Made by a program: the position numbers and the translations under genes. Below the pieces are notes generated by a model that ran no database searches, had not been told where the DNA came from, and saw only the letters and a program-made list of their open reading frames with translations. Positions 2,750 through 39,094 of a stretch of 42,332 bases of DNA are shown here, piece by piece. This stretch comes from an uncultured Lachnospiraceae bacterium. GTDB lineage: Bacteria; Bacillota; Clostridia; Lachnospirales; Lachnospiraceae. Location: assembly GCA_944380315.1 (NCBI GenBank), contig CALWHG010000070.1, forward strand, positions 1-42,332, written 5' to 3'. Within the stretch, counting starts at the first letter, position 1. Each line of letters starts with the position of its first letter.

Positions 2750-3050
2750 AATCACCCCCGAGATCTACCGCAAAGCCATACTCATCGATCAATCGTTGTC
2801 TAATAGAGCCAAGAGTCTCCTCGCCGCTCGTCCACTTCGGCATTTGATCTTCGATGTATTGAAGCACCGGCTGACACTCCTCCGGCGATAGCTTCAGTAT
2901 CTTTATTAATGCCTCTGCGAATAGCAAAAACATAGCCTCTACTCGGCCATCCGTAAGGACTTTCTCCTGCCGTTTTACAAAATACTGTCGGAGCTCAGCC
3001 TCAACCTTCCGTTGCCTGCGTTCAACCTCCCTACGTTCCACTCTGTTCAT
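2739..3050 (-). CDS. Hypothetical protein, charged coiled-coil N-terminus
   Basis: This is a 103-residue protein whose first 35 residues are very rich in Arg, Glu and Lys (RREVERRQRKVEAELRQ) and predict a coiled coil. The remainder looks helical. The ATG overlaps the stop codon of the RNA ligase gene upstream in an ATGA arrangement, a clear sign of one operon with coupled translation. I cannot assign a function. Proteins of this size next to DnaB-like helicases are often loaders or accessory factors, but no specific motif supports that here. Confidence 0.8.
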   Translation of the reverse strand: MNRVERREVERRQRKVEAELRQYFVKRQEKVLTDGRVEAMFLLFAEALIKILKLSPEECQPVLQYIEDQMPKWTSGEETLGSIRQRLIDEYGFAVDLGGDYGR

Positions 3051-3688
3051 ATCACAAAATCCTCGACTTTGACTTTAACTATCACGCGCTTTCCACGACG
3101 ATCTAAGAGCTCTATCATAGGTCTGCCAACCACACCCTCCATATCTGCCGTGCCCATCATTGACTTAGGGCGAAGCTTGATAAATTCCACAGCATCTTCT
3201 ATCGTGCCCGTAAGTACTATCGGGACACAATCTATTCCGAAGGTCTGTGCAATATCTTCGACGGCGTCCCTCTTAAACCAGAGATTCTGCTCAGGAAGAT
3301 ATACATCGAACAATATGAACGATACATCTGACCGGTACGTGCTTCCGCGTTTTTGTATCTTCGGCCCGTAACCCTCTCCGTAAAGGATTACTTTCGTTTC
3401 TCCGAATTTCTGTTCAAACAGCTCCTCGTTGTCGTTTCCTCCGAAGAACTCTATAAGCTTATTAAGGAGATCCGCCGGTATCTGTGCACGCTCCGTACGC
3501 CCGTGATACTCTACTTTGTGACCGTCCCAGCAAACGGATATATTGGTGCCGTCAATTTTCTCGGTCCATAAAAATTTATTATCTTTCAGATACTCAATCG
3601 TCTCATCTCGAAAATTACCCTCGATGAGCTTCTTAGTTCCCTCAGTATCTCGTTCAAATACTCCGGAAATTTTATGATACTCAATCAT
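3047..3688 (-). CDS. RNA ligase, Rnl2-like nucleotidyltransferase
   Basis: This 213-residue protein carries the covalent nucleotidyltransferase motifs of RNA ligases. Motif I is EKIDGTN with the AMP-accepting lysine at residue 44. Motif III is near YGEGYG (103-108), motif IIIa near FILFDVY (124-130), motif IV at EGVV (184-187) and motif V at KVKVE (205-209). It ends just after motif V, so only the catalytic domain is present. The start is the ATG at 3686-3688 with an AAAGGGG site upstream, giving an 8-base overlap with the previous gene; a reading frame 25 codons longer lacks a ribosome binding site. It would seal 3'-OH/5'-phosphate ends in RNA, possibly broken tRNAs, and may work with the kinase-HD enzyme at 38117. 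Confidence 0.88.
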   Translation of the reverse strand: MIEYHKISGVFERDTEGTKKLIEGNFRDETIEYLKDNKFLWTEKIDGTNISVCWDGHKVEYHGRTERAQIPADLLNKLIEFFGGNDNEELFEQKFGETKVILYGEGYGPKIQKRGSTYRSDVSFILFDVYLPEQNLWFKRDAVEDIAQTFGIDCVPIVLTGTIEDAVEFIKLRPKSMMGTADMEGVVGRPMIELLDRRGKRVIVKVKVEDFVI

Positions 3689-3995
3689 GATCAGGCCCCT
3701 TTTCTTTAGGAACTCCCACTCTGGTTGCCGACCGCAGTGTTCTCTTGACTTCACAATGCCCACCTACAAACCGCTTTGTTATGGCGGCACATAGTCCAGC
3801 GTATTCGTTAAACTCCTCGCCATCCTTAACTTTGACTTGCACCGATGAGCCATCGGCAAATTTTACATAAGTGATCTTCTTCTTATGATTAAAGCTAACA
3901 AGTTCTATCTTAGGGATCAGATCGCTTGTCTTCTCGACAACCGTACGACAGTCAAGCAATGGAAATAAGTTCATAAACTCCATAGAATCAACCAT
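3681..3995 (-). CDS. Hypothetical phage protein in replication operon
   Basis: This is a 104-residue protein of unknown function. The start was set at the second in-frame ATG because GAGAGGGG lies 6-8 bases before it. The middle has a short beta-rich pattern (KKITYVKFADGSSVQVKV), and the C-terminus is basic. It sits between SSB and RNA ligase and overlaps the ligase gene by 8 bases, so it is probably co-expressed with the replication genes. Confidence 0.75.
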   Translation of the reverse strand: MVDSMEFMNLFPLLDCRTVVEKTSDLIPKIELVSFNHKKKITYVKFADGSSVQVKVKDGEEFNEYAGLCAAITKRFVGGHCEVKRTLRSATRVGVPKEKGPDHD

Positions 3996-5483: not shown

Positions 5484-5568
5484 AGATGACCCGCAAAAAG
5501 GGTCAAGAAAAAAGGGCAGACGAGTGTTGATTCTCGCTTACCAATCAGCCGCAGCCGATCCTGCCCTT
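5484..5568 (-). terminator. Tandem terminator-like hairpins closing the RNA array
   Basis: Two hairpins lie in tandem on the minus strand. The first (5512-5568) pairs AAGGGCAG with CTGCCCTT over 8 bp and is followed directly by a run of T. Its 41-nt interior contains a smaller hairpin GCGAG/CTCGT. The second (5488-5504) pairs GACCC with GGGTC over a 7-nt loop and is followed by ATCTATTTTT. Both fit intrinsic termination of the RNA array before the replication operon. The long interior of the first also resembles a tRNA acceptor stem with D- and T-like arms, so it may be a processed RNA as well. Confidence 0.5.
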
Positions 5569-5639
5569 AAACTATATTATTCACCACACTTAAGGAAAAT
5601 TATTCAATTGTCAAGGAGCGATGATCTGCTGATATAAAA

Positions 5640-6202
5640 CCAACAGATAAATTCCGTGAGCAGGAGTCGAACCTGCTATTATATGCCGCCGGGCCACAGA
5701 GCCAAATAAATGGAGAATCTAACATGGGCGGCCACAGTCACCACAACTACGGCCAAGTGGATAGGCGGGATTTGATACCCGCACGCAACCTTTTTAACGC
5801 TCGCTCGTTTTTAATCTACTCAGATTGTTAGTTTGCCTTTCGATGACCCTCGAATGTCTATGTCAACACCCTTATGCCTCTCTCGGTCAGTCTGTACTGG
5901 TGCGCCTCAGTGGATAACTGATATTTACCCCTCGTTCGGGCGCTGAGTTCGCAGCTACCGCAGCAAGAGTATGTTGCCAGTCCCTACTGTACGTCTACTT
6001 CCGCCACTATCCAACCTTATGGATGATGGTGCTATCGGTCCATCTGCCCGTCCGATTTCCACGGAGACTCGACTGTGCATTTCTGCTTACGTTTGTCATT
6101 CCGGCACGTCCTAACGCTTTTGCATGCAGAAACATAGTTGTGGCCGGGATTAGACTGCGCTGTGGCTACGGCTTTATGCACAACCATATACGACAGCCCA
6201 AA
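5640..6202 (-). ncRNA. Candidate large structured non-coding RNA downstream of tRNA-Leu(CAG)
   Basis: About 560 bases with no credible gene follow the last tRNA of the array. The minus strand is dense in short helices. At its 3' end is a canonical 17-nt T-arm (GCAGG TTCGACT CCTGC, 5660-5676) with no matching anticodon arm. Others include GGTTGTG/CACAACT enclosing 6136-6184, TTTCTGC/GCAGAAA around 6080-6136, GCCGCC/GGCGGC, an AATCT-GAGT-AGATT tetraloop hairpin, GCGGG/CCCGC with an 8-nt loop, and overlapping TGAC/GTCA and TTCGA/TCGAA pairings that would make a pseudoknot. Large ornate phage RNAs such as ROOL and GOLLD are known to lie next to tRNAs in Firmicutes phages. Assignment to either is inference. 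Confidence 0.4.
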
Positions 6203-6922: not shown

Positions 6923-7419
6923 AGTCGCTTTCCATGTCTTATCTCGACACCGGTGTGTGCACCACCCGCCAGCAACCACATTTACAAGCTACGCATATCT
7001 GGCCGAGCTTGCGTCGCCAAATGCTCCTTGTGCGCCTGGCACATGAGCTAAAAATATAGCCTTTGTCGCTGTTTTGTCCCAACGTTTTCCGTGGTAATGG
7101 GCCTTCGGCGGTTGCGATCCGCTCACTATTCAATATTCGCACCTTCCCTCAGTGCAAGGACATTGATCTTCCCCGCGACTCTCCTGTTGCTACACAAGTT
7201 GATCTTGGCTATGCCCCGGTAATCGCTTAATCGTTAAATGTTCAAGGAACTGCGAAAATCGGATTCTCGCTCCCACACATGGTGAGTGAGTAGTTGATAA
7301 GCCCCACCTCCTGCTTATCACTTCTGGCCGCACATACCGAAATGGCCATTCCACATACGGTCAAAAACCGGCGACTCCGCAAAACCGGCCGAGCGATCGC
7401 TACTTAATGACATATGCGC
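6923..7419 (-). ncRNA. Candidate large structured non-coding RNA inside the tRNA array
   Basis: About 500 gene-free bases lie between a tRNA body and the chain of stem-closed units. Minus-strand structure includes an 8-bp hairpin TGATAAGC/GCTTATCA (7295-7320) whose loop is AGGAGGTGGG, a GCGAGAA/TTTTCGC hairpin, CTC-A-CCA-[TGTG]-TGG-GAG, and CAAGCT/AGCTTG overlapping ACGCA/TGCGT (a possible pseudoknot). Others are GTGC/GCAC, TGCGA/TCGCA, and perfect palindromes AATGGCCATT and AGCGATCGCT that could form kissing loops. The size, helix density, palindromic loops and tRNA neighbours resemble ornate phage RNAs of the ROOL/GOLLD kind. I cannot confirm a family without a covariance search. Confidence 0.35.
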
Positions 7420-7474
7420 TTACTCCCTGTCACAAACGCCACTATTTCACATCTCTCCACTTTGTTTGGAGTAA
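7420..7474 (-). ncRNA. Stem-closed unit 1 (55 nt)
   Basis: A perfect 7-bp end helix TTACTCC/GGAGTAA encloses 41 nt with a possible inner pairing ACAAA/TTTGT. No anticodon or T-arm is visible. It is one of a run of stem-closed units spaced like tRNAs in this array. Confidence 0.35.
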
Positions 7475-7509
7475 TTTACTACGGAGTTTTTAAAAGTAAT
7501 GTTTAAGGA

Positions 7510-7588
7510 ACGCAGGTCCAATTCCAAAGGAATTCTAAGTCTTGCGACCTACTCCCATTCGGGAACCCAGGTTTGTTCTTTCCTGCGT
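7510..7588 (-). ncRNA. Stem-closed unit 2, cloverleaf-like (79 nt)
   Basis: The end helix is ACGCAGG/CCTGCGT (7 bp). Three hairpins fill the interior in tRNA order: TCCC-GAA-TGGGA, AGGTC-GCAA-GACTT (a GNRA tetraloop where an anticodon loop would be) and AATTCC-TTT-GGAATT. The overall form is a four-way junction of tRNA size, but no arm has tRNA consensus bases. Unit 3 begins 5 nt away. Confidence 0.45.
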
Positions 7589-7593
7589 CCAAT

Positions 7594-7647
7594 CGTGAGC
7601 TCTGGTGAAAATCCAGAAGCCAGCTCTCGATGTCAGGCTTACTCACG
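7594..7647 (-). ncRNA. Stem-closed unit 3 (54 nt)
   Basis: The end helix is CGTGAG/CTCACG (6 bp). Inside are AAGCC/GGCTT and a 5-7-5 arm TCTGG-ATTTTCA-CCAGA at the T-arm position. It lies 2 nt from tRNA-Arg(CCG), typical of tRNA spacing. Confidence 0.4.
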
Positions 7648-7649
7648 CA

Positions 7650-7721
7650 TTTCGCCAAAGAGAGTCGAACTCTTATTCTCAGATCCGGAATCTGAAGTTC
7701 TATCCATTGAACTATGGCGAC
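7650..7721 (-). tRNA. tRNA-Arg(CCG)
   Basis: Acceptor stem GTCGCCA/TGGCGAA (first pair G-A), D-arm GTTC..GAAC, anticodon arm TCAGA-TTCCGGA-TCTGA and T-arm AAGAG-TTCGACT-CTCTT. The anticodon is CCG. Confidence 0.9.
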
Positions 7722-7726
7722 TTAGC

Positions 7727-7769
7727 ATCTCGACGGGGAGTTGGTTTCGGCATCCAACGAAGTCGAGAT
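7727..7769 (-). ncRNA. Stem-closed mini unit with T-arm-like hairpin (43 nt)
   Basis: An 8-bp helix ATCTCGAC/GTCGAGAT encloses a 5-bp GTTGG/CCAAC hairpin whose 9-nt loop (ATGCCGAAA) looks like a T-loop with two extra bases. The unit is acceptor stem plus T-arm only, a minihelix-like RNA. Confidence 0.4.
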
Positions 7770-7811
7770 CTGTTACAGTTCTATTCACGCAACCTTGCTC
7801 CAAAAGTGCTC

Positions 7812-7841
7812 TGCGGAGAACTCTGCAACTAAAACTCCGCA
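7812..7841 (-). ncRNA. 7-bp hairpin in the spacer before tRNA-Ser
   Basis: TGCGGAG pairs with CTCCGCA over a 16-nt loop. It ends 2 nt from tRNA-Ser(GCT). The neighbouring 7770-7811 shows only weak pairing (for example AGTTCT/AGAACT). Confidence 0.3.
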
Positions 7842-7843
7842 AA

Positions 7844-7926
7844 CGGTATTGCCGTGACTCGAACACGGACTGCATTGCTGCAGGAAGGATTAGCAATCCT
7901 CTGCGATACCTTTACGCCACAATACC
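7844..7926 (-). tRNA. tRNA-Ser(GCT)
   Basis: Acceptor stem GGTATTG/CAATACC, anticodon arm GAGGA-TTGCTAA-TCCTT, class II variable arm CTGCA-GCAA-TGCAG and T-arm CCGTG-TTCGAGT-CACGG. The anticodon is GCT and the discriminator G, as expected for Ser. Confidence 0.92.
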
Positions 7927-7932
7927 TAATTC

Positions 7933-8000
7933 GGTTTCCTTGTACATAAGCCTACTTGATCCCTATTCGAGTGCTCTTAGAAGTTTGCTGTGAGGAAACC
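7933..8000 (-). ncRNA. Stem-closed unit with CAGCAAA motif (68 nt)
   Basis: A 7-bp end helix GGTTTCC/GGAAACC encloses 54 nt. Directly after the 5' helix strand comes TCACAGCAAA, shared with three other units. Inner pairs are weak (ACTT/AAGT, CTT/AAG). It ends 6 nt before tRNA-Ser(GCT). Confidence 0.45.
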
Positions 8001-8006
8001 TCTTTT

Positions 8007-8096
8007 CTGTTTTCTGTAATTGTTGGACTCGAACCAACTCGTTTTGAATTCGCAGATCAATTCTTTTACCTAAAAGTTTTTGCTGTAAGAAAACAG
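8007..8096 (-). ncRNA. tRNA-like RNA with 9-bp end helix; Y-RNA-like candidate (90 nt)
   Basis: The end helix is CTGTTTTCT/AGAAAACAG, 9 bp and perfect. Inside, in tRNA order, are a D-like arm CTTTT-AGGT-AAAAG, an anticodon-like arm GAATT-[GATCTGCG]-AATTC with an 8-nt loop, and a canonical T-arm GTTGG-TTCGAGT-CCAAC. There is no tRNA acceptor stem. Unpaired TACAGCAAAAA and AATTAC join the arms to the end helix. Bacterial Y RNAs of the YrlA type combine a tRNA-like module with a Ro-binding helix made from the two RNA ends, and this layout fits. The Ro60-like gene at 8651-10108 is about 550 bases upstream on the same strand. A defective tRNA-Gln(CTG) is the other reading. Confidence 0.5.
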
Positions 8097-8099
8097 GTT

Positions 8100-8141
8100 T
8101 TGTTTGCCAGTTTACATTCCGCGGAATTATTCGGCAAACAA
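8100..8141 (-). ncRNA. Stem-closed mini unit with palindromic loop (42 nt)
   Basis: A 9-bp helix TTGTTTGCC/GGCAAACAA encloses 24 nt that contain the perfect palindrome ATTCCGCGGAAT. The unit is 1 nt from tRNA-Glu and 3 nt from the next unit. The palindrome could fold on itself or dimerise two RNAs. Confidence 0.45.
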
Positions 8142-8142
8142 C

Positions 8143-8217
8143 TGATCCCCGGCGGACTCGAACCGCATCATTTTCGCCGTGAAAGGGCGATGTCCTGACC
8201 AATTAGACGAGGGGACC
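8143..8217 (-). tRNA. tRNA-Glu(TTC)
   Basis: Acceptor stem GGTCCCC/GGGGATC, D-arm GTCTAATTGGTCAGGAC, anticodon arm TCGCC-CTTTCAC-GGCGA and a T-arm with loop TTCGAGT and one terminal mismatch. The anticodon is TTC. Confidence 0.9.
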
Positions 8218-8356
8218 GCACCGGCATCCGCCGGTATCCGCATTATTTATCGAGCTGCTTACGCTCTACCAGGCATTCGATTTCAGTACATCATGTAGAA
8301 ACATAAGAAGGAGTTCCAATGGAATATATGTAATGGCACATGCCTGGAGTGCCGAT
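8218..8356 (-). other. Spacer between tRNA-Glu and the next tRNA body
   Basis: There is no gene here. It holds a CCGGC-GGAT-GCCGG hairpin just before tRNA-Glu and a GAGC-GTAAGCA-GCTC hairpin followed by TCGATAAATAA. A similar GCGTAAGCA..TTGATAATTAAATA stretch precedes tRNA-Gln at about 10641-10663, so it may be a shared leader or promoter element. A plus-strand AAGGAG-ATG peptide of four codons is probably chance. Confidence 0.3.
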
Positions 8357-8440
8357 AAGAGACGCCGGGACTCGAACCCGGATCTTGCTCTCCCTGTTTT
8401 ACGTAGCGCTACGCTGCTCTTCCCATTGAGCTACGTCTCT
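8357..8440 (-). tRNA. tRNA body with tetraloop in place of the anticodon loop
   Basis: The acceptor stem AGAGACG/CGTCTCT, D-arm (GCTC..GAGC) and T-arm CCGGG-TTCGAGT-CCCGG are all perfect. The 34 nt between D- and T-stems should hold a class II anticodon arm. They instead fold as GCGTA-[GCGC]-TACGT, five pairs over a 4-nt loop, followed by 19 unpaired nt. No T33-plus-anticodon can be placed. It is either a degenerate Leu/Ser-type tRNA or a tRNA-shaped RNA that cannot decode. Confidence 0.6.
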
Positions 8441-8446
8441 TTATTT

Positions 8447-8635
8447 TTAATCATCAGCGACCGCTATCAAAAATGCCAACAGCATAATGATTCCACCCCA
8501 GATGAAGGTCGCCGTATTGATATCCATGTCGTAAGCTATCAGCTTTGCTATGAGAAACGAAACTGCCACAACTATCAACCAACTCATGAACAAAGTCGAA
8601 AGCAGTAACACGGTCTTAAGAATCTTTACCCACAT
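8447..8635 (-). CDS. Small two-helix membrane protein
   Basis: This 62-residue protein is almost entirely hydrophobic, with two predicted membrane helices (about residues 7-30 and 40-60) joined by a short polar turn and ending VADD. The ATG follows a GGAGAGTAGG stretch. It is 15 bases downstream of the Ro60-like gene and just before the tRNA array continues, so it is probably co-transcribed with both. Size and topology would suit a holin-like or membrane-modulating peptide, but no specific family is recognised. Confidence 0.6.
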   Translation of the reverse strand: MWVKILKTVLLLSTLFMSWLIVVAVSFLIAKLIAYDMDINTATFIWGGIIMLLAFLIAVADD

Positions 8636-8650
8636 CCTACTCTCCGTTTC

Positions 8651-10108
8651 TCAGACTACTATGATGCTTTGATATCTGTCGCTATTTAAGACATCATACA
8701 TAAGCTCCACCGGCGTCTTTCCGATACTACCAACCAGATTCTTAAACGTAGAAGCTGACTGGCCCGAAACAAGTTGGACGCCTTTATGATGAGCATCCGC
8801 CAGGAATGTATCGTGCCTGCTATCAACATTCCAAAAGACGATGTTTGGTATCTTATATCCGGCAGCATCAAACTCTTTCTTCACATAATCGTAAAAATTG
8901 TCTCCATGCAGCTGATAAGTACAACTATTTATTTCCATATCCGAGATAATAATCAACGCCTCAGGCATCTCATCCTGTGAACAATGATTTTCTTTCGCAA
9001 CAGAAAGAATCTTAAGCATCGCCGCTTCTAAGTTTGTACTGCCGTGCCACGAAGCCCTGCTGATAAAACTGATTTTGTGCCGTATATCTGCTCCTTTGAT
9101 TTCAACAAACTGCGGATCAGTAGTAAAGGTCATAAATAAGTTATGATATGGGCCATGATTTCTTTCGGCAAAATATAAAGCCAATCCAACGGAAGTCGCC
9201 ATCGGCCTTCCTGTCATCGAACCAGATACATCCGCCATAACCACTGCATTTGTTCCGGGCGTAACATAGTTCGGTAGACTGTTCCATTGCGCCGCCAAAA
9301 CATCACTGTCTACTTCTTGATACAGAATTTTCTCGACTATGTCATACGGATACAGCGTCGAAGCATTGATCTTTGCTGCTCCTGAAGTCACATCCTTGAG
9401 ATAACCCTCGAACCGTTCATTGTCATGTTTTTTGAAAGCGTTCCTGTAATTCATCATTGCACGAGATGGAACCGAGGGATATTCAATATTCGCCCAATCC
9501 CTTGCGCACATCTTAACTTCAACTACATCAAGATATTTACGAAGTGAGCTGCAAATTCTGTTATAATCTCTTACTGAATACCCAAGGTTGTTCGCCGTAT
9601 AGGCTCCCATCCTCGACGTATTCTTACTGGTTGCGTCCGCTTTCTTGAGCCACTTTGCCAAGAGGGAACAGGGGTGATTTTTCCCCATTGCCGTACGATC
9701 CGCTTCAAGTTGCCTCCGTACAATCTCCCACATATCCTCTTCGAGCGGCGTATCAATCAACGAATACATATCGTCCCATCTTCCGTAAAAGGGAATTAAG
9801 GAAAGATTTCTTCTGACTTCGTCGGCATGTTTCTTTGCGGCATAGTTAATGAGAATACGGAATGTTCTTCTTTCACCGAGACCGCCGCGGACGTCTCTTG
9901 CATAATAAAGACATCTCATAGCCCCAAGCGGATCCTCTTGATATGCAAGTTCAAATTTCTTTATTATCTCATCCTCGGAGCGAGACCTCATCGCTCCAAT
10001 CGTCGCAAACATATCAAGCAATGCACTGTCAGTTGTATTCTTTACGACCGCACCATTTTCGGTCTTTGTCCATTTTGTTTCTTCTTTCATTGCTGTTGCA
10101 AACTGCAT
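8651..10108 (-). CDS. Ro60/TROVE-like RNA-binding protein with C-terminal vWA domain (DUF2828 type)
   Basis: This is a 485-residue protein. Residues 30-280 form a helical-repeat region with the phrases 'EDPLGAMRCLYYARDVRGG' and 'IPFYGRWDDM', which I recognise from DUF2828/TROVE-like proteins. Residues 285-480 form a von Willebrand A domain with an intact MIDAS start D293-V-S295-G-S297. Ro60 proteins have this architecture: a HEAT-repeat ring that binds misfolded RNAs and Y RNAs, plus a vWA domain. A DUF2828-only label is the cautious alternative. The gene sits inside the tRNA array between tRNA-Lys and the tRNA/unit chain, all on one strand, so its RNA partners may be encoded next to it. The start follows a GGAGGGG site that lies in the loop of an AAGAA/TTCTT hairpin (10109-10125). 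Confidence 0.82.
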   Translation of the reverse strand: MQFATAMKEETKWTKTENGAVVKNTTDSALLDMFATIGAMRSRSEDEIIKKFELAYQEDPLGAMRCLYYARDVRGGLGERRTFRILINYAAKKHADEVRRNLSLIPFYGRWDDMYSLIDTPLEEDMWEIVRRQLEADRTAMGKNHPCSLLAKWLKKADATSKNTSRMGAYTANNLGYSVRDYNRICSSLRKYLDVVEVKMCARDWANIEYPSVPSRAMMNYRNAFKKHDNERFEGYLKDVTSGAAKINASTLYPYDIVEKILYQEVDSDVLAAQWNSLPNYVTPGTNAVVMADVSGSMTGRPMATSVGLALYFAERNHGPYHNLFMTFTTDPQFVEIKGADIRHKISFISRASWHGSTNLEAAMLKILSVAKENHCSQDEMPEALIIISDMEINSCTYQLHGDNFYDYVKKEFDAAGYKIPNIVFWNVDSRHDTFLADAHHKGVQLVSGQSASTFKNLVGSIGKTPVELMYDVLNSDRYQSIIVV

Positions 10109-10125
10109 AAGAACCCCTCCTTCTT
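10109..10125 (-). promoter_or_regulatory. RBS-in-loop hairpin at the start of the Ro60-like gene
   Basis: AAGAA pairs with TTCTT and presents the GGAGGGG ribosome binding site as a 7-nt loop. The helix abuts the ATG. A 5-bp A/T-rich stem is weak, but it could modulate initiation or bind a protein such as the Ro60-like product itself. Confidence 0.4.
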
Positions 10126-10146
10126 AATCTTTCATCTGTTAATCAG

Positions 10147-10219
10147 TGATCCCAGCGGGAATCGAACCCGCGACAGCTTGATTAAAAGTCAAGTGCTCTA
10201 CCGACTGAGCTACGGAATC
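10147..10219 (-). tRNA. tRNA-Lys(TTT)
   Basis: Acceptor stem GATTCCG/TGGGATC, D-arm AGCTC..GAGC, anticodon arm CTTGA-CTTTTAA-TCAAG and T-arm GCGGG-TTCGATT-CCCGC. The anticodon is TTT. tRNA-Lys is the classic target of PrrC-type anticodon nucleases. Confidence 0.94.
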
Positions 10220-10224
10220 GCAAC

Positions 10225-10282
10225 GGTCTGCATTGAATTTAGTCTTACCAATACTCTCCAACTTTTTTGCTGTGAGCAGACC
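10225..10282 (-). ncRNA. Stem-closed unit with CAGCAAA motif (58 nt)
   Basis: The end helix GGTCTGC/GCAGACC (7 bp) is followed on its 5' side by TCACAGCAAA, then AAAGTTGG and a D-loop-like GGTAAGAC. No anticodon arm or T-arm is visible. It ends 5 nt before tRNA-Lys. Confidence 0.45.
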
Positions 10283-10285
10283 TTA

Positions 10286-10357
10286 ACTTCGTGCAATAAA
10301 CTGGAATGAGATAATAATGATAAACTTAACTTGAAAGAAAGGCGCGATGCACGAAGT
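10286..10357 (-). ncRNA. Stem-closed unit with 10-bp end helix (72 nt)
   Basis: ACTTCGTGCA pairs perfectly with TGCACGAAGT and encloses 52 AT-rich nt without clear arms. It is 3 nt from the units on both sides, the same spacing as adjacent tRNAs. Confidence 0.45.
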
Positions 10358-10360
10358 AAT

Positions 10361-10409
10361 GACTTTGCGCGGGCATGAACCGCGACTCTCTTTTCAAGAG
10401 CTCAAAGTC
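10361..10409 (-). ncRNA. 49-nt mini tRNA-like RNA
   Basis: The end helix GACTTTG/CAAAGTC is acceptor-like. One small hairpin CTC-TTGAAAA-GAG and a T-arm CGCGG-TTCATGC-CCGCG follow. A whole arm of the cloverleaf is missing: either the D-arm, with GAA as a Phe anticodon, or the anticodon arm. The same bases can be read as a 28-codon peptide with AGAAGGA before its ATG (10326-10412), so a coding role is not excluded. Confidence 0.5.
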
Positions 10410-10436
10410 CATATTCCTTCTTATGTATCCTAATAC

Positions 10437-10509
10437 GCTATGCCTTCGGGAAACGTCTGGGTATAGGAAGAACAATGTTATGCGTAATATTTTTTGCTGC
10501 AAGCATAGC
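10437..10509 (-). ncRNA. Stem-closed unit with CAGCAAA motif (73 nt)
   Basis: The end helix GCTATGC/GCATAGC (7 bp) is followed by TTGCAGCAAA on the 5' side. The interior has no T-arm consensus. The overall length equals a class I tRNA. The next 54 nt up to tRNA-Gln hold only a TGGC/GCCA hairpin. Confidence 0.45.
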
Positions 10510-25284: not shown

Positions 25285-26981
25285 GCTATATCCTCCATTT
25301 CTGTCACATTTGCTCCGCAGGCAGGGCATGTCCCATCGCTATTCGGCTCTATAATTTCTCCGCAAGACGGGCATACCGGATAATTGCCGATAAACTCATC
25401 ACATACAAACCGTGGTCCATTCGGTGTTTCTACCTCGTTAAGTGTTTCCAATGGAACCAGTTCGCCACAATAACTACAAGTTCCATAATACTGATTGGCG
25501 CAATCGTCACAGACCAATACTCGTTCGCCATTCCGGACTACGTTAACCATGCGATCCTGGGTATGCCATTCGCCACACTCAGCGCATTGCTCGCAATACT
25601 GATCTCTGCATTCCGGGCAATAATATGCACCGTCGATCTCTGTCATGACCGAAGAGGTCCAGTAAGTGCCACACTGATCACACTGGTCGAAATGCTCGTC
25701 TCTGCAATCCTCGCAAACCGTTATCCAATCGCCGTCACTATTGCGAACGGAATATACATCTTCTCCTTCGGCACCACAGAAGTCGCAGATACGCATATCT
25801 TCATCACCATCTCCATCGTCACACTCAAAGCAGCACAGGCCGTCCGAGATTTCTTCTCCGCATTTAATACAAAGTCCATAAGTTCCTACCACTAAAGGAC
25901 TTACAAGTCCTTCTGCCACATCACAATCGTTACGAATACTGATACGTCCATCAAACTGCGAATAAGCCCAGTCCTGATATCCGCCGAAACCTCGCCCCGC
26001 CTTGACCAAAGGACTGTAACTACCGGTCGACGAATACGTTTTCCATATATTGGGCATATCTTCCAACATAGAGATCTCTCGCTGGACCAGATCTCTATAT
26101 AAACGAGACTCTTCTACTGCTCCATACACTCCGCCGCCCGTATTGTACATTCTGCTCTGTAGCAAAAGTCCACTGCCAGGGCGATACGCAAATATCTGCC
26201 TGGTAGTCTTTCGGTTATTGAATGTTTCCGGATCATTAGGATCGGCGACGGTAAACACTATAAAGCTGGTATTGTCTCTTGCATACCCGGAGCATCCGAC
26301 ATTATAAGAGTACTCCGTTGAATTGAAAGAATGACAGCTGGTCAATGTCGCTCCGCGCCTATCTCCCTTTGGATTACTCATAGTAAGGAAATGCGCCGGA
26401 TTAATGCTGACATACAGTTTAAAATCAATCTTCTTGGCAGATAACTCATCCGCGAACTTTGCATACAGTCTCTGAAATTCACTGCCGGCGGTCTCATCGG
26501 CTATTCCCTGCGCCACACATACATCCCTGAAGATCCTGCTGGGCTTTTTATTCGGAGCATATGCGCCCGGCGCCAGTCGCTCGATCGCGGCAATGTATGT
26601 TTCCCTTACGTCATTTTCTACGTCAGGACATGCAAAGAACCTTAAAGCATCCAGAAAGACATCGAGATTATCTTCAGTGATAATACCCTTTGCCGCATTT
26701 TCATAGATTGTTATTCCTAAGTACCATATAGTGTCTCGATTCAGATCGTGCGTCCTCGTGCCGTTAATAACCAGGGCATCCAGTTCCTCATTCCAGCACG
26801 GTGACTTACGAAACAACTCTCTCAGATCCTGCTTGGCCTTGGTGCTGTCCGCTGCAAGTCTGCGTATAAATTCGTTCGACACACAGTCAAGGACCCTTGT
26901 ATCATCCGTATACTTCCCATAATCCTGCAAAGCCTGCCGAATATTCTTTTCGGCCATATCAATTTTTGCCTGCATTTCCAT
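25281..26981 (-). CDS. Large zinc-ribbon-rich phage protein (566 aa)
   Basis: The N-terminal 370 residues are of unknown fold; a KLYVSINPAHFLTMSNPKGDRRGATLTSCHSFNS stretch may carry catalytic residues. The C-terminus has at least eight C-x2-C pairs (CIKCGEE, CDFCGAE, CDQCGTYW, CAECGEWH, CSYCGEL, CPSCGEI, CPACGAN), so four or more zinc ribbons lie in tandem. I recognise the type from large genes in Clostridia phages and mobile elements, but no function is assigned. The ATG follows GGAGG. It overlaps the peptidase gene by 4 bases. Confidence 0.85.
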   Translation of the reverse strand: MEMQAKIDMAEKNIRQALQDYGKYTDDTRVLDCVSNEFIRRLAADSTKAKQDLRELFRKSPCWNEELDALVINGTRTHDLNRDTIWYLGITIYENAAKGIITEDNLDVFLDALRFFACPDVENDVRETYIAAIERLAPGAYAPNKKPSRIFRDVCVAQGIADETAGSEFQRLYAKFADELSAKKIDFKLYVSINPAHFLTMSNPKGDRRGATLTSCHSFNSTEYSYNVGCSGYARDNTSFIVFTVADPNDPETFNNRKTTRQIFAYRPGSGLLLQSRMYNTGGGVYGAVEESRLYRDLVQREISMLEDMPNIWKTYSSTGSYSPLVKAGRGFGGYQDWAYSQFDGRISIRNDCDVAEGLVSPLVVGTYGLCIKCGEEISDGLCCFECDDGDGDEDMRICDFCGAEGEDVYSVRNSDGDWITVCEDCRDEHFDQCDQCGTYWTSSVMTEIDGAYYCPECRDQYCEQCAECGEWHTQDRMVNVVRNGERVLVCDDCANQYYGTCSYCGELVPLETLNEVETPNGPRFVCDEFIGNYPVCPSCGEIIEPNSDGTCPACGANVTEMEDIA

Positions 26982-33560: not shown

Positions 33561-34751
33561 ATGACCGGAAAGCTAACCACAACCCCTGTAACCCTTGCCA
33601 TAAGGACTCCGAAATATGATCTGATGGCTTTCTCTTCTACCGGATTCGGCTCCGTTAGATGCTTTGATGCTGTGGATAATGCCTGGTTCTTGGGCAAAGA
33701 CGTTGCTACCGCGCTTGGATATCCATTTCCCATTCAAGCGGTCAGAGCTCGCGTCAAGAGTTGTGACCGGAAAGTATTTCTCAAATCCATGTTCAACCCG
33801 CCGGAGCAGCAGACGCCTTTCGAGCTTCCTGCCGAAGCCATCCCCAATCGCGGGGCTACCTTTATTAATGAGGCTGGCATATGTTCGCTGGTGATCGGAA
33901 GTAAGCATTCCGCGGCCAAAGACTTCCTGCCGTGGGTATTTAGAGACATTCTTCCTGCTTTGCAAGTCGAGTGTCCAGCTTTAGTTTCTCCGTCCCCACA
34001 AGTTGCAACGGAGCCAATGGTTATCGGCGGGGTGGAGTGTTTCGAGAAAGATGGGATAGCCTATTTGCGTCTGGAGACGGTAGCCAGAGGGCTTGGTTTT
34101 ACAGAAATAAAAAACGGCATCGAATACATTAAGTGGCGCAGAGTCGAGACTTATTTAAGAGAGTTGAGTTTCGCCACTTGTGGCGAAAGACCAGAATTCG
34201 TTCCGGAGAGTGTCTTCTATATGCTGGCGATGAAGGCCAACAATGAGACGGCGCACAGATTCCAGTGGAGGATTGCAAATGACATCCTGCCAACGCTCCG
34301 GCGCACAGGTACATATAGTCTTCCCGGCGTAAAACCCGAGGCATCAACTCCGATACTTGTAGAAGCTCCCGAGGTTATTGCTGCCAGGCAGAAGATGGAA
34401 GAAGCCATGGTCGGTCCCGATGAACTGTGGACTTTTACCAGAACGGCCAAGTGTTTTGGTGTCAGCATCTCCGAGTTAACCAATTACCTCCGCGATAGCG
34501 GATACATTGAGAAGAACTCGGATGACCTGTGGCTCCCTACTGATAAGCAGGGTGACCGGAGGTTTTTTGAGGTCAAAACACGTATGCCTCGTTGCGGCAA
34601 AGGCCGGATCTTTCCGCAGGCATACACCACCCAAGCAGGTCGAGCCTACTTCTCTACCTTGATCAACGCGGCAAGAGTCGCCGGTGAACTGTATAAAGGA
34701 AGTGAAGCGAACAAGGCGGCCGGAGCTAAGAGGCGAAAGAATCCGAGTTAA
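33561..34751 (+). CDS. BRO-family regulator with two BRO-N domains and KilA-C
   Basis: This 396-residue protein carries a first BRO-N domain (about residues 25-135: VRCFDAVDNAWFLGKDVATALGY ... INEAGICSLVIGSK ... WVFRDILPAL). A second, more diverged BRO-N-like domain (about 150-250) reads YLRLETVARGLGF and FQWRIANDILPTLRRTG. The C-terminal 100 residues are a KilA-C domain (TRTAKCFGVSISELTNYLRDSGYI). BRO/KilA proteins bind DNA and act as phage regulators or antirepressors. A doubled BRO-N is less common. The start has AAAGGAAC upstream. Confidence 0.88.
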   Translation: MTGKLTTTPVTLAIRTPKYDLMAFSSTGFGSVRCFDAVDNAWFLGKDVATALGYPFPIQAVRARVKSCDRKVFLKSMFNPPEQQTPFELPAEAIPNRGATFINEAGICSLVIGSKHSAAKDFLPWVFRDILPALQVECPALVSPSPQVATEPMVIGGVECFEKDGIAYLRLETVARGLGFTEIKNGIEYIKWRRVETYLRELSFATCGERPEFVPESVFYMLAMKANNETAHRFQWRIANDILPTLRRTGTYSLPGVKPEASTPILVEAPEVIAARQKMEEAMVGPDELWTFTRTAKCFGVSISELTNYLRDSGYIEKNSDDLWLPTDKQGDRRFFEVKTRMPRCGKGRIFPQAYTTQAGRAYFSTLINAARVAGELYKGSEANKAAGAKRRKNPS

Positions 34752-34944: not shown

Positions 34945-35081
34945 AGATGATTAAAAGAATAATGCTGTGTACGATGTTGATGGTCTGCGGCGCGGCCGTA
35001 GGATCTTGCGGAATGATGCCGGCGCTGGCGGACCAGAACGTTGAGTGTATAGTGACACCGGAAAGGAGTGACTGTGACTGA
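34941..35081 (+). CDS. Small secreted peptide (46 aa)
   Basis: The frame KMIKRIMLCTMLMVCGAAVG has a basic start and a hydrophobic core ending in ALA-D, a signal peptide or small lipoprotein pattern. The site is AGGAAGG, about 10 bases away. The frame overlaps the RNA ligase start by 8 bases. Confidence 0.5.
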   Translation: MKMIKRIMLCTMLMVCGAAVGSCGMMPALADQNVECIVTPERSDCD

Positions 35082-36192
35082 CAACTCATATCTCTGCAGA
35101 TTCATCTCGGAGCACCCCGATGATTGGCGGGAGCTGCTCGCCGAGAAGAATATCAAGATCTCCGACGAGTCGCCCTACTCTATTTTTAACTATAATATCG
35201 GCGCGGACTTCTTTGATCCCATAGTGCAGGAGGCCCGGGGCATCATAATAAATACGGAGACGATCGAGGTTGCCTGCTGGCCTTTCCGGAAATTCGGCAA
35301 CTGGGATGAACCTTATGCGGACGAGATTGACTGGTCCACCGCGAGAGTCGAAGAAAAAATCGACGGCAGTATAGTAAAGCTCTGGTGGGATCCGCTGCGA
35401 AATACATGGAGATGGTCCACTAATAGCGTTATAGATGCGCTCAATGCCAAGGTTGGGACATGGACAAGCTTTCTGTACTTGATTACTTCGGCAAAGAATT
35501 ACGATGAGATCAGAAACGCTATAAAGAGCGGACGTGTGTCCAAGGATAGAACATACATATTTGAGCTTGTTGGCCCAGAGAATCAGGTGGTCGTTCGTTA
35601 TGCTGAGCCGTATCTCTACCATATCGGCACGAGGAGCAATGTAAACGGACAGGAGTACCGACCGTCCATTGGAATCTCTCATTCGCCGACGTTTGAAGTA
35701 TCGGACCTGGGCTCTTGCATAGAGATGGCAGAAGCGTTGAATTCGAGCCATATGTTCATTTTAGGGGAAGGGTTTGTGGTCATTGATGCCAATTGGCACC
35801 GGATCAAAGTCAAATCGTCGTGGTACAGGATCATGCATCATGCCATAAATAACGGAGTTATGACCGCGGAAACTATAGTCAATCTGATTCGTGCTAACGA
35901 GGATATTGATGCCTACTGTCGAAACTTCCCCGCACTCTCCCGCCATTTTAAATATTACCAATGGCAAGTTGAGGAGCTGAAGTACGGAGCGGAAGAGGTT
36001 TGCCGGATCGTAGATATGGAGCGGCTCAATAGCTTCGACCGCAAGCAGATAGCCCTGCGGATAAAGGACAATCGGTATGCGGCGATCGGGTTCAGACATC
36101 TTGATAGCGGCAAGTCAGCTGCAGAGATACTGGCGGACATGACTGATCGAGCGTGGTTAAAATATATCAAACAGTACGAAAAGGAGAGTTAA
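35074..36192 (+). CDS. T4 Rnl1-like RNA ligase
   Basis: This 372-residue protein starts at a GTG 6 bases after AAAGGAG. It has the RNA ligase motifs: motif I EEKIDGS with the lysine at residue 95, motif IIIa FELVGPEN (163-170), motif IV EGFVV (232-236) and motif V IKVKS (244-248). It also has the conserved upstream ARGIIIN (54-60). A C-terminal domain of about 115 residues follows, as in T4 RNA ligase 1, which repairs tRNA. Along with the kinase-HD enzyme it can heal and seal cut tRNAs. The window therefore holds two ligases, with one of each type. Confidence 0.9.
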   Translation: MTDNSYLCRFISEHPDDWRELLAEKNIKISDESPYSIFNYNIGADFFDPIVQEARGIIINTETIEVACWPFRKFGNWDEPYADEIDWSTARVEEKIDGSIVKLWWDPLRNTWRWSTNSVIDALNAKVGTWTSFLYLITSAKNYDEIRNAIKSGRVSKDRTYIFELVGPENQVVVRYAEPYLYHIGTRSNVNGQEYRPSIGISHSPTFEVSDLGSCIEMAEALNSSHMFILGEGFVVIDANWHRIKVKSSWYRIMHHAINNGVMTAETIVNLIRANEDIDAYCRNFPALSRHFKYYQWQVEELKYGAEEVCRIVDMERLNSFDRKQIALRIKDNRYAAIGFRHLDSGKSAAEILADMTDRAWLKYIKQYEKES

Positions 36193-38081: not shown

Positions 38082-38116
38082 AGGACTAAAAAGAGGAGGT
38101 GTCTAAGGGTTTGAGC

Positions 38117-39094
38117 ATGATTGAAGAGTATACAAGGCCTAAATTTTATATGCTTATGGGGCTGCCGGGCAGTGGCAAAACAACAATCGCGTCGCAGCTT
38201 TATATGAATGATCCGAATGCTGTTCTTTTATCGTCGGATGAATTTAGGAATGATATATGCCCGGGAGATTATTCAAAAGAGGCACACGGAAAAGTTTTTT
38301 CCGCGATGAACTCTGCTGCGAGGAAGGCCGTGAAGGATGGCTTTACCGTTGTATATGATGCAACGAATCTTTCTCGTAAACGCCGTATGGGGCTTAGAGA
38401 GTTAATGGGGAATGACCATGAGAAAGTATGTATTTGTGTTCTTAAGTCCGTTAGGGATTGTATTCAGCAAGACAGGAGCCGAGTCCAGTCCGTGGGCGCA
38501 GATGTCATCCGCCGCAGTTTGGGGAGCTTCTGCCCGCCGCATATCTGTGAAGGGTGGAACTCTATAGAGTTAGTCGGTGCCACGAACACAGACGAGGCTG
38601 TAAAGAATGTGCTGAATTGGCAGGGGTATGTGGCTTCTACGAAAACATTTAATCAGAAGAGCAAGTGGCATGAACATACTTTGGGGGAGCATATGAGGCT
38701 CACGGAAGAGTATGCCGTTGCCGAGGGATGCAACGATGTCGTCAGGCTGGCTGCAAGATATCACGATGTGGGCAAGCTCTTTACTCAGGAGATGGATGAC
38801 GAAGGAGAAGCTCACTATAAATATCACGCTAATGTCGGGGCGTACGAATTCCTGCTGTGGAAGTATTCGCAGGCGGTGCTTAATCTGGATAATACTGATT
38901 CCCGTACATGGTTAGATGTTGCGAACCTGATATACTGTCACAAGCTTCCGGCAGACTGGAGAAGAAGTCCTAAAGCCTCGGAACGAGCCCAAAAGGTTTT
39001 AGGCGAGCAGACCATGGATTGGCTTATGGCATTGAATCATGCGGATATCTTAGCACATGGCGAGAAGGCAAAGGAGGCGATTTTAGAGAAATAA
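38117..39094 (+). CDS. Polynucleotide kinase-HD end-healing enzyme
   Basis: This 325-residue protein has an N-terminal P-loop kinase (Walker A GLPGSGKT at 15-22, SSDEFR at 39-44, YDATN at 80-84, lid QDRSRVQSVGADVIRR at 118-133). An HD phosphohydrolase domain follows (residues 183-325, RYHDVGKLF with H216/D217, then HYKYHANVGA). Known bacterial HD-Pnk enzymes heal RNA ends, with the HD domain as 2',3'-phosphoesterase and the kinase as 5'-OH kinase, but in the opposite order. Here the kinase comes first, as in T4 Pnkp. The start was chosen at the ATG after AAGGG; GTG or TTG starts 6 and 2 codons upstream are possible. Confidence 0.87.
   Translation: MIEEYTRPKFYMLMGLPGSGKTTIASQLYMNDPNAVLLSSDEFRNDICPGDYSKEAHGKVFSAMNSAARKAVKDGFTVVYDATNLSRKRRMGLRELMGNDHEKVCICVLKSVRDCIQQDRSRVQSVGADVIRRSLGSFCPPHICEGWNSIELVGATNTDEAVKNVLNWQGYVASTKTFNQKSKWHEHTLGEHMRLTEEYAVAEGCNDVVRLAARYHDVGKLFTQEMDDEGEAHYKYHANVGAYEFLLWKYSQAVLNLDNTDSRTWLDVANLIYCHKLPADWRRSPKASERAQKVLGEQTMDWLMALNHADILAHGEKAKEAILEK

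What the first reader, a model, noticed from the sequence alone, without database searches (positions are those of the whole stretch)
7420..10509. Chain of non-tRNA, stem-closed RNA units tiled between tRNAs
Between the tRNAs I find about ten minus-strand segments, each closed by a perfect 6-10 bp helix: 7420-7474, 7510-7588, 7594-7647, 7727-7769, 7933-8000, 8007-8096, 8100-8141, 10225-10282, 10286-10357, 10361-10409 and 10437-10509. Lengths are 42-90 nt and gaps to neighbours mostly 1-6 nt, the spacing of adjacent tRNAs. Only two carry a T-arm consensus. By rough count about two such helices would be expected by chance in the spacers. Ordinary decay of tRNAs should not keep perfect end helices while losing everything inside. 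They may be processed by tRNA maturation enzymes and act as decoys, Ro/Y-type RNAs or other regulators.
Basis: partly seen in the sequence, partly recalled or inferred. Interest (0 to 1): 0.9.

Follow-up and report, generated by a model that had tools for sequence, protein, structure and literature searches.

The report
Phage Y RNAs around Ro gene
Four of the eleven odd RNA units in this phage's tRNA cluster look like Y RNAs, small tRNA-mimicking partners of the Ro protein, and they flank a divergent Ro-like gene in an arrangement that recurs in many other phages.

Summary
Four units (10437-10509, 10225-10282, 8007-8096, 7933-8000) share N(A/G)CAGCAA directly after the 5' strand of the closing helix. 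They bracket ORF 8651-10108, a divergent Ro60 homologue (DUF2828/DUF7788, phrog_850). In 84 related loci the same helix-plus-motif units lie beside the homologous gene: 147 on its strand, 6 on the other; 68 of 84 loci have at least one. The helix covaries at all eight pairs. With no helix requirement, 106 of 139 upstream motifs have the helix, against 6.8 when the downstream sequence is shuffled. Many family units carry T-arms, anticodon-arm-like hairpins or a permuted tRNA module. So this is a phage Y-RNA array with its own signature. Phage Y RNAs as a kind are in print. The other seven units are not explained by this; one is a D-arm-less mini-tRNA. Expression, protein binding and function were not tested.

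The parts
8651..10108 (-). Gene of a divergent Ro60-like protein (485 aa; DUF2828 + DUF7788/vWA, phrog_850)
   Evidence: Pfam 1.5e-37 and 1.8e-38; phrog_850 6.7e-147; profile alignment to cellular TROVE proteins, probability 93.9, E 1.6e-7 over 368 columns
10437..10509 (-). Y-like RNA unit 1 (73 nt), upstream of the Ro-like gene; helix then TGCAGCAA
   Evidence: rank 2 of R1 hits in the window, 15.1 bits, E 0.13; fold z -0.12, so no unusual overall stability
10225..10282 (-). Y-like RNA unit 2 (58 nt), upstream of the Ro-like gene; helix then CACAGCAA
   Evidence: rank 1 of R1 hits in the window, 20.1 bits, E 0.0064; fold z -3.2
8007..8096 (-). Y-like RNA unit 3 (90 nt), downstream of the Ro-like gene; helix then TACAGCAA; contains a T-arm and a second hairpin
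   Evidence: R1 hit 8008-8095 rank 3, 14.2 bits, E 0.21; sub-threshold tRNA match 8022-8075, 23.1 bits; fold z -1.2
7933..8000 (-). Y-like RNA unit 4 (68 nt), downstream of the Ro-like gene; helix then CACAGCAA
   Evidence: weak R1 hit, rank 7, 8.8 bits, E 5.5; fold z -1.5
10361..10409 (-). Helix-closed unit without the motif: mini-tRNA with acceptor, one arm and T-arm but no D-arm
   Evidence: fold (z -2.4)
10286..10357 (-). Helix-closed unit without the motif (10 bp), unexplained
   Evidence: fold z -3.3
8100..8141 (-). Helix-closed unit without the motif (9 bp), unexplained
   Evidence: fold z -3.3
7727..7769 (-). Helix-closed unit without the motif (8 bp), unexplained
   Evidence: fold z -3.2
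7594..7647 (-). Weaker helix-closed unit without the motif, unexplained
   Evidence: not in the list of helices of at least 7 bp; fold z -1.9
7510..7588 (-). Helix-closed unit without the motif (7 bp), unexplained
   Evidence: fold z -2.9
7420..7474 (-). Helix-closed unit without the motif (7 bp), unexplained
   Evidence: fold z -1.5

Best explanation
Four of the units are Y RNAs of a phage Ro ribonucleoprotein. Shown here: each is a 58-90 nt segment closed by a 7-9 bp helix whose 5' strand is followed at once by N(A/G)CAGCAA; they lie on the strand of, and on both sides of, a gene for a divergent Ro60 homologue; the same RNA architecture, with covarying helices, accompanies that gene in most relatives examined; and many family members contain parts of a tRNA. 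Inferred: the helix with CAGCAA is the part held by the Ro-like protein (the lower stem is where Ro60 binds known Y RNAs); the units are cut out of the tRNA transcript; and the variable upper part, often tRNA-like, is a scaffold or lure that brings tRNA-acting enzymes or a nuclease to the Ro ring, in a setting of RNA repair and quality control (the window also encodes two RNA ligases and a kinase-HD protein).
For: Motif in four units and nowhere else in the window as TYRCAGCAAA. Ro60 homology of the middle gene. 147 same-strand against 6 opposite-strand units near the gene; 12 of 17 viral, 43 of 52 genome and 13 of 15 phage loci have at least one. Motif alone: 139 upstream on the gene's strand, 4 on the other; 106 of 139 with the helix against 6.8 (maximum 16) with shuffled downstream sequence. 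Covariation at eight of eight pairs. Independent search with one helix variant: 25 of 49 viral contigs encode phrog_850, 12 of the 14 of at least 60 kb, against 680 of 50,697 phage records. T-arms in 36 of 154 units (0.2 in shuffles) and anticodon-arm-like hairpins in 40 of 154 (5.1 in shuffles). RNA ligases and kinase in the window.
Against: No expression or binding data for these RNAs. The window's four are divergent: R1 gives only one of them E below 0.01 in the window, 7933-8000 scores E 5.5, and in the whole assembly the best is E 0.33 (150 of 629 candidates scored). None of the four has a complete tRNA module, and 10437-10509 is no more stable than its shuffles. 16 of 84 loci have no unit by the fixed rule (three of them begin at the gene). 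24 of 49 contigs with the RNA pattern show no phrog_850, though records may be fragments and some matches chance. The four units match no Rfam Y-RNA family at the gathering score.
Confidence: 0.83

Rival explanations
1. All units are decayed or truncated tRNAs that happen to keep their acceptor stems.
For: They lie in a tRNA array with tRNA-like spacing; 10361-10409 folds as a D-arm-less tRNA; 8007-8096 carries a T-arm and a sub-threshold tRNA match.
Against: A fixed motif after the helix shared with units in phages of other hosts, strand bias and linkage to the Ro-like gene, and covarying helices are not expected of decay. Acceptor stems are not followed by NACAGCAA.
Confidence: 0.07
2. The units are structured RNAs cut out by tRNA-processing enzymes that work as decoys for host tRNA-cutting nucleases or processing enzymes, without needing the Ro-like protein.
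For: tRNA-like spacing; anticodon-arm-like hairpins and T-arms in family members; RNA-repair genes in the window.
Against: The strong linkage to the Ro-like gene and the constant helix-plus-motif beside a variable rest point to a shared protein partner. The window's four units show no clear anticodon arm.
Confidence: 0.07
3. The helices are cis elements of one long transcript, for instance processing or regulatory sites controlling the Ro-like gene, and not separate RNAs.
For: Most units in relatives lie just upstream of the gene (106 helix-bearing motifs within 700 nt).
Against: Two of the four in the window lie downstream of the gene, as do units in LeBron, FelixO1 and the Staphylococcus phage; they occur in several copies and some enclose tRNA modules.
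Confidence: 0.03

Closest known systems
Bacterial Y RNAs: YrlA/YrlB and Deinococcus Y RNA (Chen et al. 2014, not held; Rfam RF02553 YrlA)
   Same: Encoded beside a Ro60 homologue; ends joined by a stem; family members carry a permuted tRNA-like module.
   Different: The phage units have NACAGCAA right after the 5' strand of the closing helix; the three cellular candidates do not show this arrangement, although a CAGCAA lies just 5' of the stem in G105 (there paired in the predicted fold) and in G066, so a link cannot be excluded. Units are multiple and mostly short, many without a tRNA module.
Ro60 / Rsr proteins (TROVE, PDB 1yvp, 2nvo)
   Same: Profile alignment over 368 columns including the vWA domain; the cellular set used for it matches 1yvp and 2nvo.
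   Different: The phage protein falls in Pfam DUF2828 and DUF7788 and shows no TROVE match at E up to 1; aligned identity 18%.
Putative Y RNAs of Listeria phage CKA15 (PMC12282133, passages read)
   Same: The paper suggests Y RNAs near an Rsr-like gene of the same family in a P100-like phage.
   Different: Its candidates CKA15_059-061 lie at 26388-26698; the three units of the present family lie at about 25289-25553, next to the gene.
Phage tRNA arrays
   Same: Same strand, same tight spacing.
   Different: None of the eleven units is among the 15 tRNA matches of the window.

Membership tests
Y RNA | Encoded beside a Ro60 homologue | tested here: met
   for the window; 68 of 84 related loci
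Y RNA | 5' and 3' ends joined by a conserved lower stem | tested here: met
   helix in all four units; covariation in 45 relatives; 106 of 139 without selection for a helix
Y RNA | At least one Y RNA of the genome has a tRNA-like domain (recalled from Chen et al. 2014) | tested here: inconclusive
   in the window only a T-arm and a hairpin in 8007-8096; in the family 36 of 154 units have a T-arm and L009, L027 and LeBron have a permuted module
Y RNA | Bound by the Ro60 homologue through the lower stem | not testable with these tools
   no binding data
Y RNA (Rfam YrlA, RF02553) | Gathering score 69 bits | tested here: not met
   no YrlA match at gathering in the window or in 8 of the related loci
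Ro60 (protein) | TROVE domain by Pfam cut-off | tested here: not met
   no TROVE match or 106
Ro60 (protein) | Homology to Ro60/Rsr along the length with a C-terminal vWA domain | tested here: met
   hhalign probability 93.9, residues 48-457 with 67-488; DUF7788 with weak VWA_2
tRNA | Cloverleaf at the gathering score of RF00005 (29 bits) | tested here: not met
   none of the eleven units among the 15 matches; 8022-8075 at 23.1 bits

The most novel reading that the evidence does not exclude
Phages with a DUF2828 Ro protein carry arrays of Ro-held tRNA mimics that show anticodon arms (most often with GUU or UUU at the anticodon place) or T-arms as interchangeable baits, so that the Ro ring captures or blocks host tRNA-cutting defence enzymes while phage RNA ligases mend cut tRNAs.
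Probability: 0.2. Interest if true: 0.85.

Novelty: new variant of a known kind. Interest (0 to 1): 0.6.

Why it matters
680 of 50,697 phage records searched, among them P100, FelixO1 and LeBron, carry this Ro-like gene, in the rows seen mostly annotated as RNA-binding, Ro-like or hypothetical. A simple signature (7-8 bp helix plus NACAGCAA) now points to its likely RNA partners, so that what a viral Ro ribonucleoprotein does during infection becomes testable in standard laboratory phages. It also suggests a second place to look for Y RNAs in Listeria phage CKA15 besides the one proposed in print.

Tried and rejected
YrlA (RF02553) search of 299 genomes: 192 have weak matches, none over the cut-off. 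Three of the listed matches (G066, G105, G003) lie close to a TROVE gene found and were read; the others were not inspected. Since that model contains tRNA-like parts, many are probably neighbouring tRNAs (inference). Not useful as a family test.

CKA15_059-061 of Listeria phage CKA15 as members of this family (PMC12282133, passages: CKA15_059 and _060 take about 67% of phage transcripts at 40 min): rejected by position. Whether the units themselves are transcribed there was not seen; the paper mentions two further strongly transcribed unannotated regions near tRNA genes without coordinates in the passages read.

Large structured RNAs in the non-coding stretches 5507-6202 and 6925-7415: fold z -0.9 and -1.1, no support.

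Motif-less units as a conserved class: in 115 pieces upstream of related genes with motif units removed there were 47 helices of at least 7 bp (12 shuffles: mean 34.2, maximum 42), 20 of at least 8 bp (10.3, 18) and 4 of at least 9 bp (2.9, 4). That is above all 12 shuffles at 7 and 8 bp, but the 8-bp list holds a tRNA (L009) and, by eye, two units with variant motifs (L059, L066). A modest excess, unresolved.

Solved-structure search with the phage profile A3 at E up to 10 gave five rows, of which two reach from a vWA-type molecule (8s05, 1e-5; 5a8j, 0.41) and none is Ro60; the link to Ro60 rests.

Selection and dropped rows: the sequences of A2 were chosen because they have a helix, so the percentage paired is inflated; one search is the test free of that. 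A1 had 52 rows; eight were left out and one (L058) added to give the 45 of A2. One search used 154 distinct of 156 units. Far from the gene one search also found 22 same-strand and 7 opposite-strand units. Of nine TROVE loci seven were aligned (A5); L165 (a stop inside) and L157 (no long frame) were left out. L026, one of the closest Ro relatives, was left out of A3 and A4 because of a stop at codon 4.

Papers: PMC12282133, PMC4726728, PMC7790460, PMC7824862, PMC9569102 and PMC13148394 were seen as passages only; other papers only as search listings. Chen et al. 2014 (PMC4201824) and PMC10870794 are not held; what is said of the 2014 paper is recalled or taken from papers that cite it. I found no print source that names this motif in searches, which cover an open-licence library only; of the 183 papers ten were listed and none was read.

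The confidence was lowered by 0.02 for it.
Full report
What the window is. The 42,332-base window is contig C70 of a 2.19-Mb draft assembly of 80 contigs. It encodes a DnaB-like helicase, integrase-like proteins, antirepressors, two RNA ligases (3047-3763, phrog_548; 35068-36192, PF09511) and a kinase-HD protein (38099-39094), so it is most likely phage or prophage DNA. On the minus strand between 6203 and 10634 there are 15 tRNA matches.

The observation. Other spacers of the same cluster show no excess.

The ORF in the middle of the array (8651-10108) matches DUF2828, DUF7788 and phrog_850, 'RNA-binding protein'. Relatives in mycobacteriophages are annotated as Ro-like RNA binding proteins. 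Compared as profiles with seven cellular TROVE proteins, which themselves match the solved Ro60 and Rsr structures, the phage family aligns over 368 columns at probability 93.9 and E 1.6e-7. It shows no TROVE match in Pfam: a divergent Ro60 homologue.

The shared motif. Four units, two on each side of this gene, have N(A/G)CAGCAA right after the 5' strand of the closing helix: 10437-10509, 10225-10282, 8007-8096 and 7933-8000. TYRCAGCAAA occurs four times in the window, all in these units; shuffles give 0.46. With a looser motif and a helix in a fixed place the window has five hits, the four units and 34285-34393, antisense to an ORF; 60 shuffles give 0.8 on average and at most 3.

Relatives. 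I fetched 17 viral contigs, 52 genome contigs and 15 of the 680 phage records that encode the Ro-like protein. By one fixed rule there are 147 units near the gene on its strand and 6 on the other; 12 of 17, 43 of 52 and 13 of 15 loci have at least one. Phages of Listeria, Mycobacterium, Bacillus, Salmonella, Staphylococcus, Enterococcus, Campylobacter and Fusobacterium are among them, and contigs from Lachnospiraceae, Erysipelotrichaceae and other Clostridia assemblies. Without a unit by this rule: 5 viral, 9 genome and 2 phage loci (Vibrio D481 and Synechococcus B23). Three of these 16 begin at the gene; L009, one of the closest relatives, has units with variant motifs, read by eye; B23 has CAGCA units by a looser rule.

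A test free of selection. Strict NACAGCAA, with no helix asked for, occurs 139 times within 700 nt upstream on the gene's strand and 4 times on the other. Of the 139, 106 have the helix in the fixed place; with the downstream sequence shuffled the mean is 6.8 and the maximum 16. Elsewhere 26 of 101 on the gene's strand and 1 of 42 on the other have it, and inside the ORF 0 of 10.

Covariation. In 45 short units, none from the window, 94.2% of cells pair and all eight pairs show changes on both sides; 93 cells carry double changes against 2-17 when the partner strand is slid. These units were picked for having a helix, which inflates the percentage; the variety of pairs is not chosen for.

Back to the window with an independent model. 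R1, built from those 45, ranks 10225-10282, 10437-10509 and 8008-8095 first to third in the window (E 0.0064, 0.13, 0.21); 7933-8000 is seventh (E 5.5). Across the whole assembly the best hit is again 10225-10282, at E 0.33, with 150 of 629 candidates scored, so the model alone would not prove membership. The case for the four rests on motif, helix, strand and neighbour together.

The reverse search. One helix variant with the motif was sought in 2.9 million viral contigs without reference to any gene: 49 contigs. 25 of 49 encode phrog_850 and none has TROVE; among contigs of at least 60 kb it is 12 of 14. In named phage records the gene is found in 680 of 50,697. The 24 others may be fragments, chance matches or true exceptions.

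tRNA mimicry. Of 154 distinct units, 36 contain a T-arm (0.2 in shuffles) and 40 an anticodon-arm-like hairpin (5.1 in shuffles), most often with GUU (9) or UUU (6) at the anticodon place. Several have a long stretch after the T-arm that reads as a closed acceptor stem and a D-arm, a permuted tRNA; L009, L027 and LeBron examples were folded. Whole tRNA-like molecules in normal order lie inside units of L072, L074 and L092. RNAs of similar layout were found beside cellular TROVE genes as weak YrlA matches in G105, G066 and G003. They do not show the helix-then-motif arrangement, but in G105 and G066 a CAGCAA lies just 5' of the stem, so a relation to the phage motif is not excluded. In the window only 8007-8096 has a T-arm, and none of the four has a full module.

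How it most likely works. Shown: conserved RNA, covarying stem, fixed motif, linkage to a Ro60 homologue, tRNA-like parts in many members. Established for relatives: Ro60 and Rsr bind the lower stem of Y RNAs, and in Deinococcus the Y RNA ties Rsr to PNPase (PMC4726728, passages). Inferred: here the stem with CAGCAA is the Ro site, the units are cut from the tRNA transcript, and the upper part recruits or baits tRNA-acting enzymes. [quoted passage not shown] LeBron gp53, the Ro-like protein, was scored cytotoxic on overexpression, as were a phage RNA ligase and a polynucleotide kinase (PMC13148394, passages).

What stays open. Seven units have no motif. One is a D-arm-less mini-tRNA. Five others with helices of at least 7 bp remain; the largest count in 300 shuffles of the whole 931 nt was five, so they too are in excess. 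In relatives motif-less closed helices show a modest excess of uncertain make-up.

Relation to the literature. That phages carry Y RNAs is in print (Chen et al. 2014, not readable here; cited for mycobacteriophages in PMC12282133). In Listeria phage CKA15 the authors suggest that three strongly transcribed regions may be Y RNAs; in the record these lie at 26388-26698, while the three units of the present family lie at about 25289-25553, next to the Ro-like gene. I therefore rate this as a new variant of a known kind.

Noticed in passing
window 5759-6012, minus strand: By eye, a tRNA-Leu-like start (GGATAG, D-arm-like stretch) and a matching T-arm with acceptor end are about 250 nt apart: possibly a tRNA with an insertion, or a broken one.
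   Followed up: no
window about 5651-5703, minus strand: By eye, a T-arm with a 7-bp acceptor-like helix but no room for the other arms: another mini-tRNA like 10361-10409.
   Followed up: no
window 8357-8440, minus strand: tRNA match of 47.3 bits that ARAGORN does not call; the anticodon region looks expanded.
   Followed up: no
L156 (Listeria phage cka15, record 26388-26698): A stretch reported as the most transcribed of the phage (PMC12282133, passages) is not part of this RNA family; its nature is open.
   Followed up: partly
L026:5001-6455: The Ro-like frame of one of the closest relatives has a stop at codon 4: a later start, a sequencing error or recoding.
   Followed up: no
L072:4632-4738, L074:4496-4600, L074:4607-4716, L092:1901-2024: Whole tRNA-like molecules in normal order (32-55 bits) lie inside the closing helix of Y-like units.
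   Followed up: partly
L003-type cellular loci: L151 (G105), L153 (G066), L165 (G003): Likely cellular Y RNAs beside TROVE genes, below the YrlA cut-off, with an anticodon-arm-like CUGUUAA loop and a permuted tRNA module.
   Followed up: partly
window 34285-34393, minus strand: Fifth helix-plus-motif hit, antisense to ORF 33561-34751 and far from the array; taken as chance.
   Followed up: no
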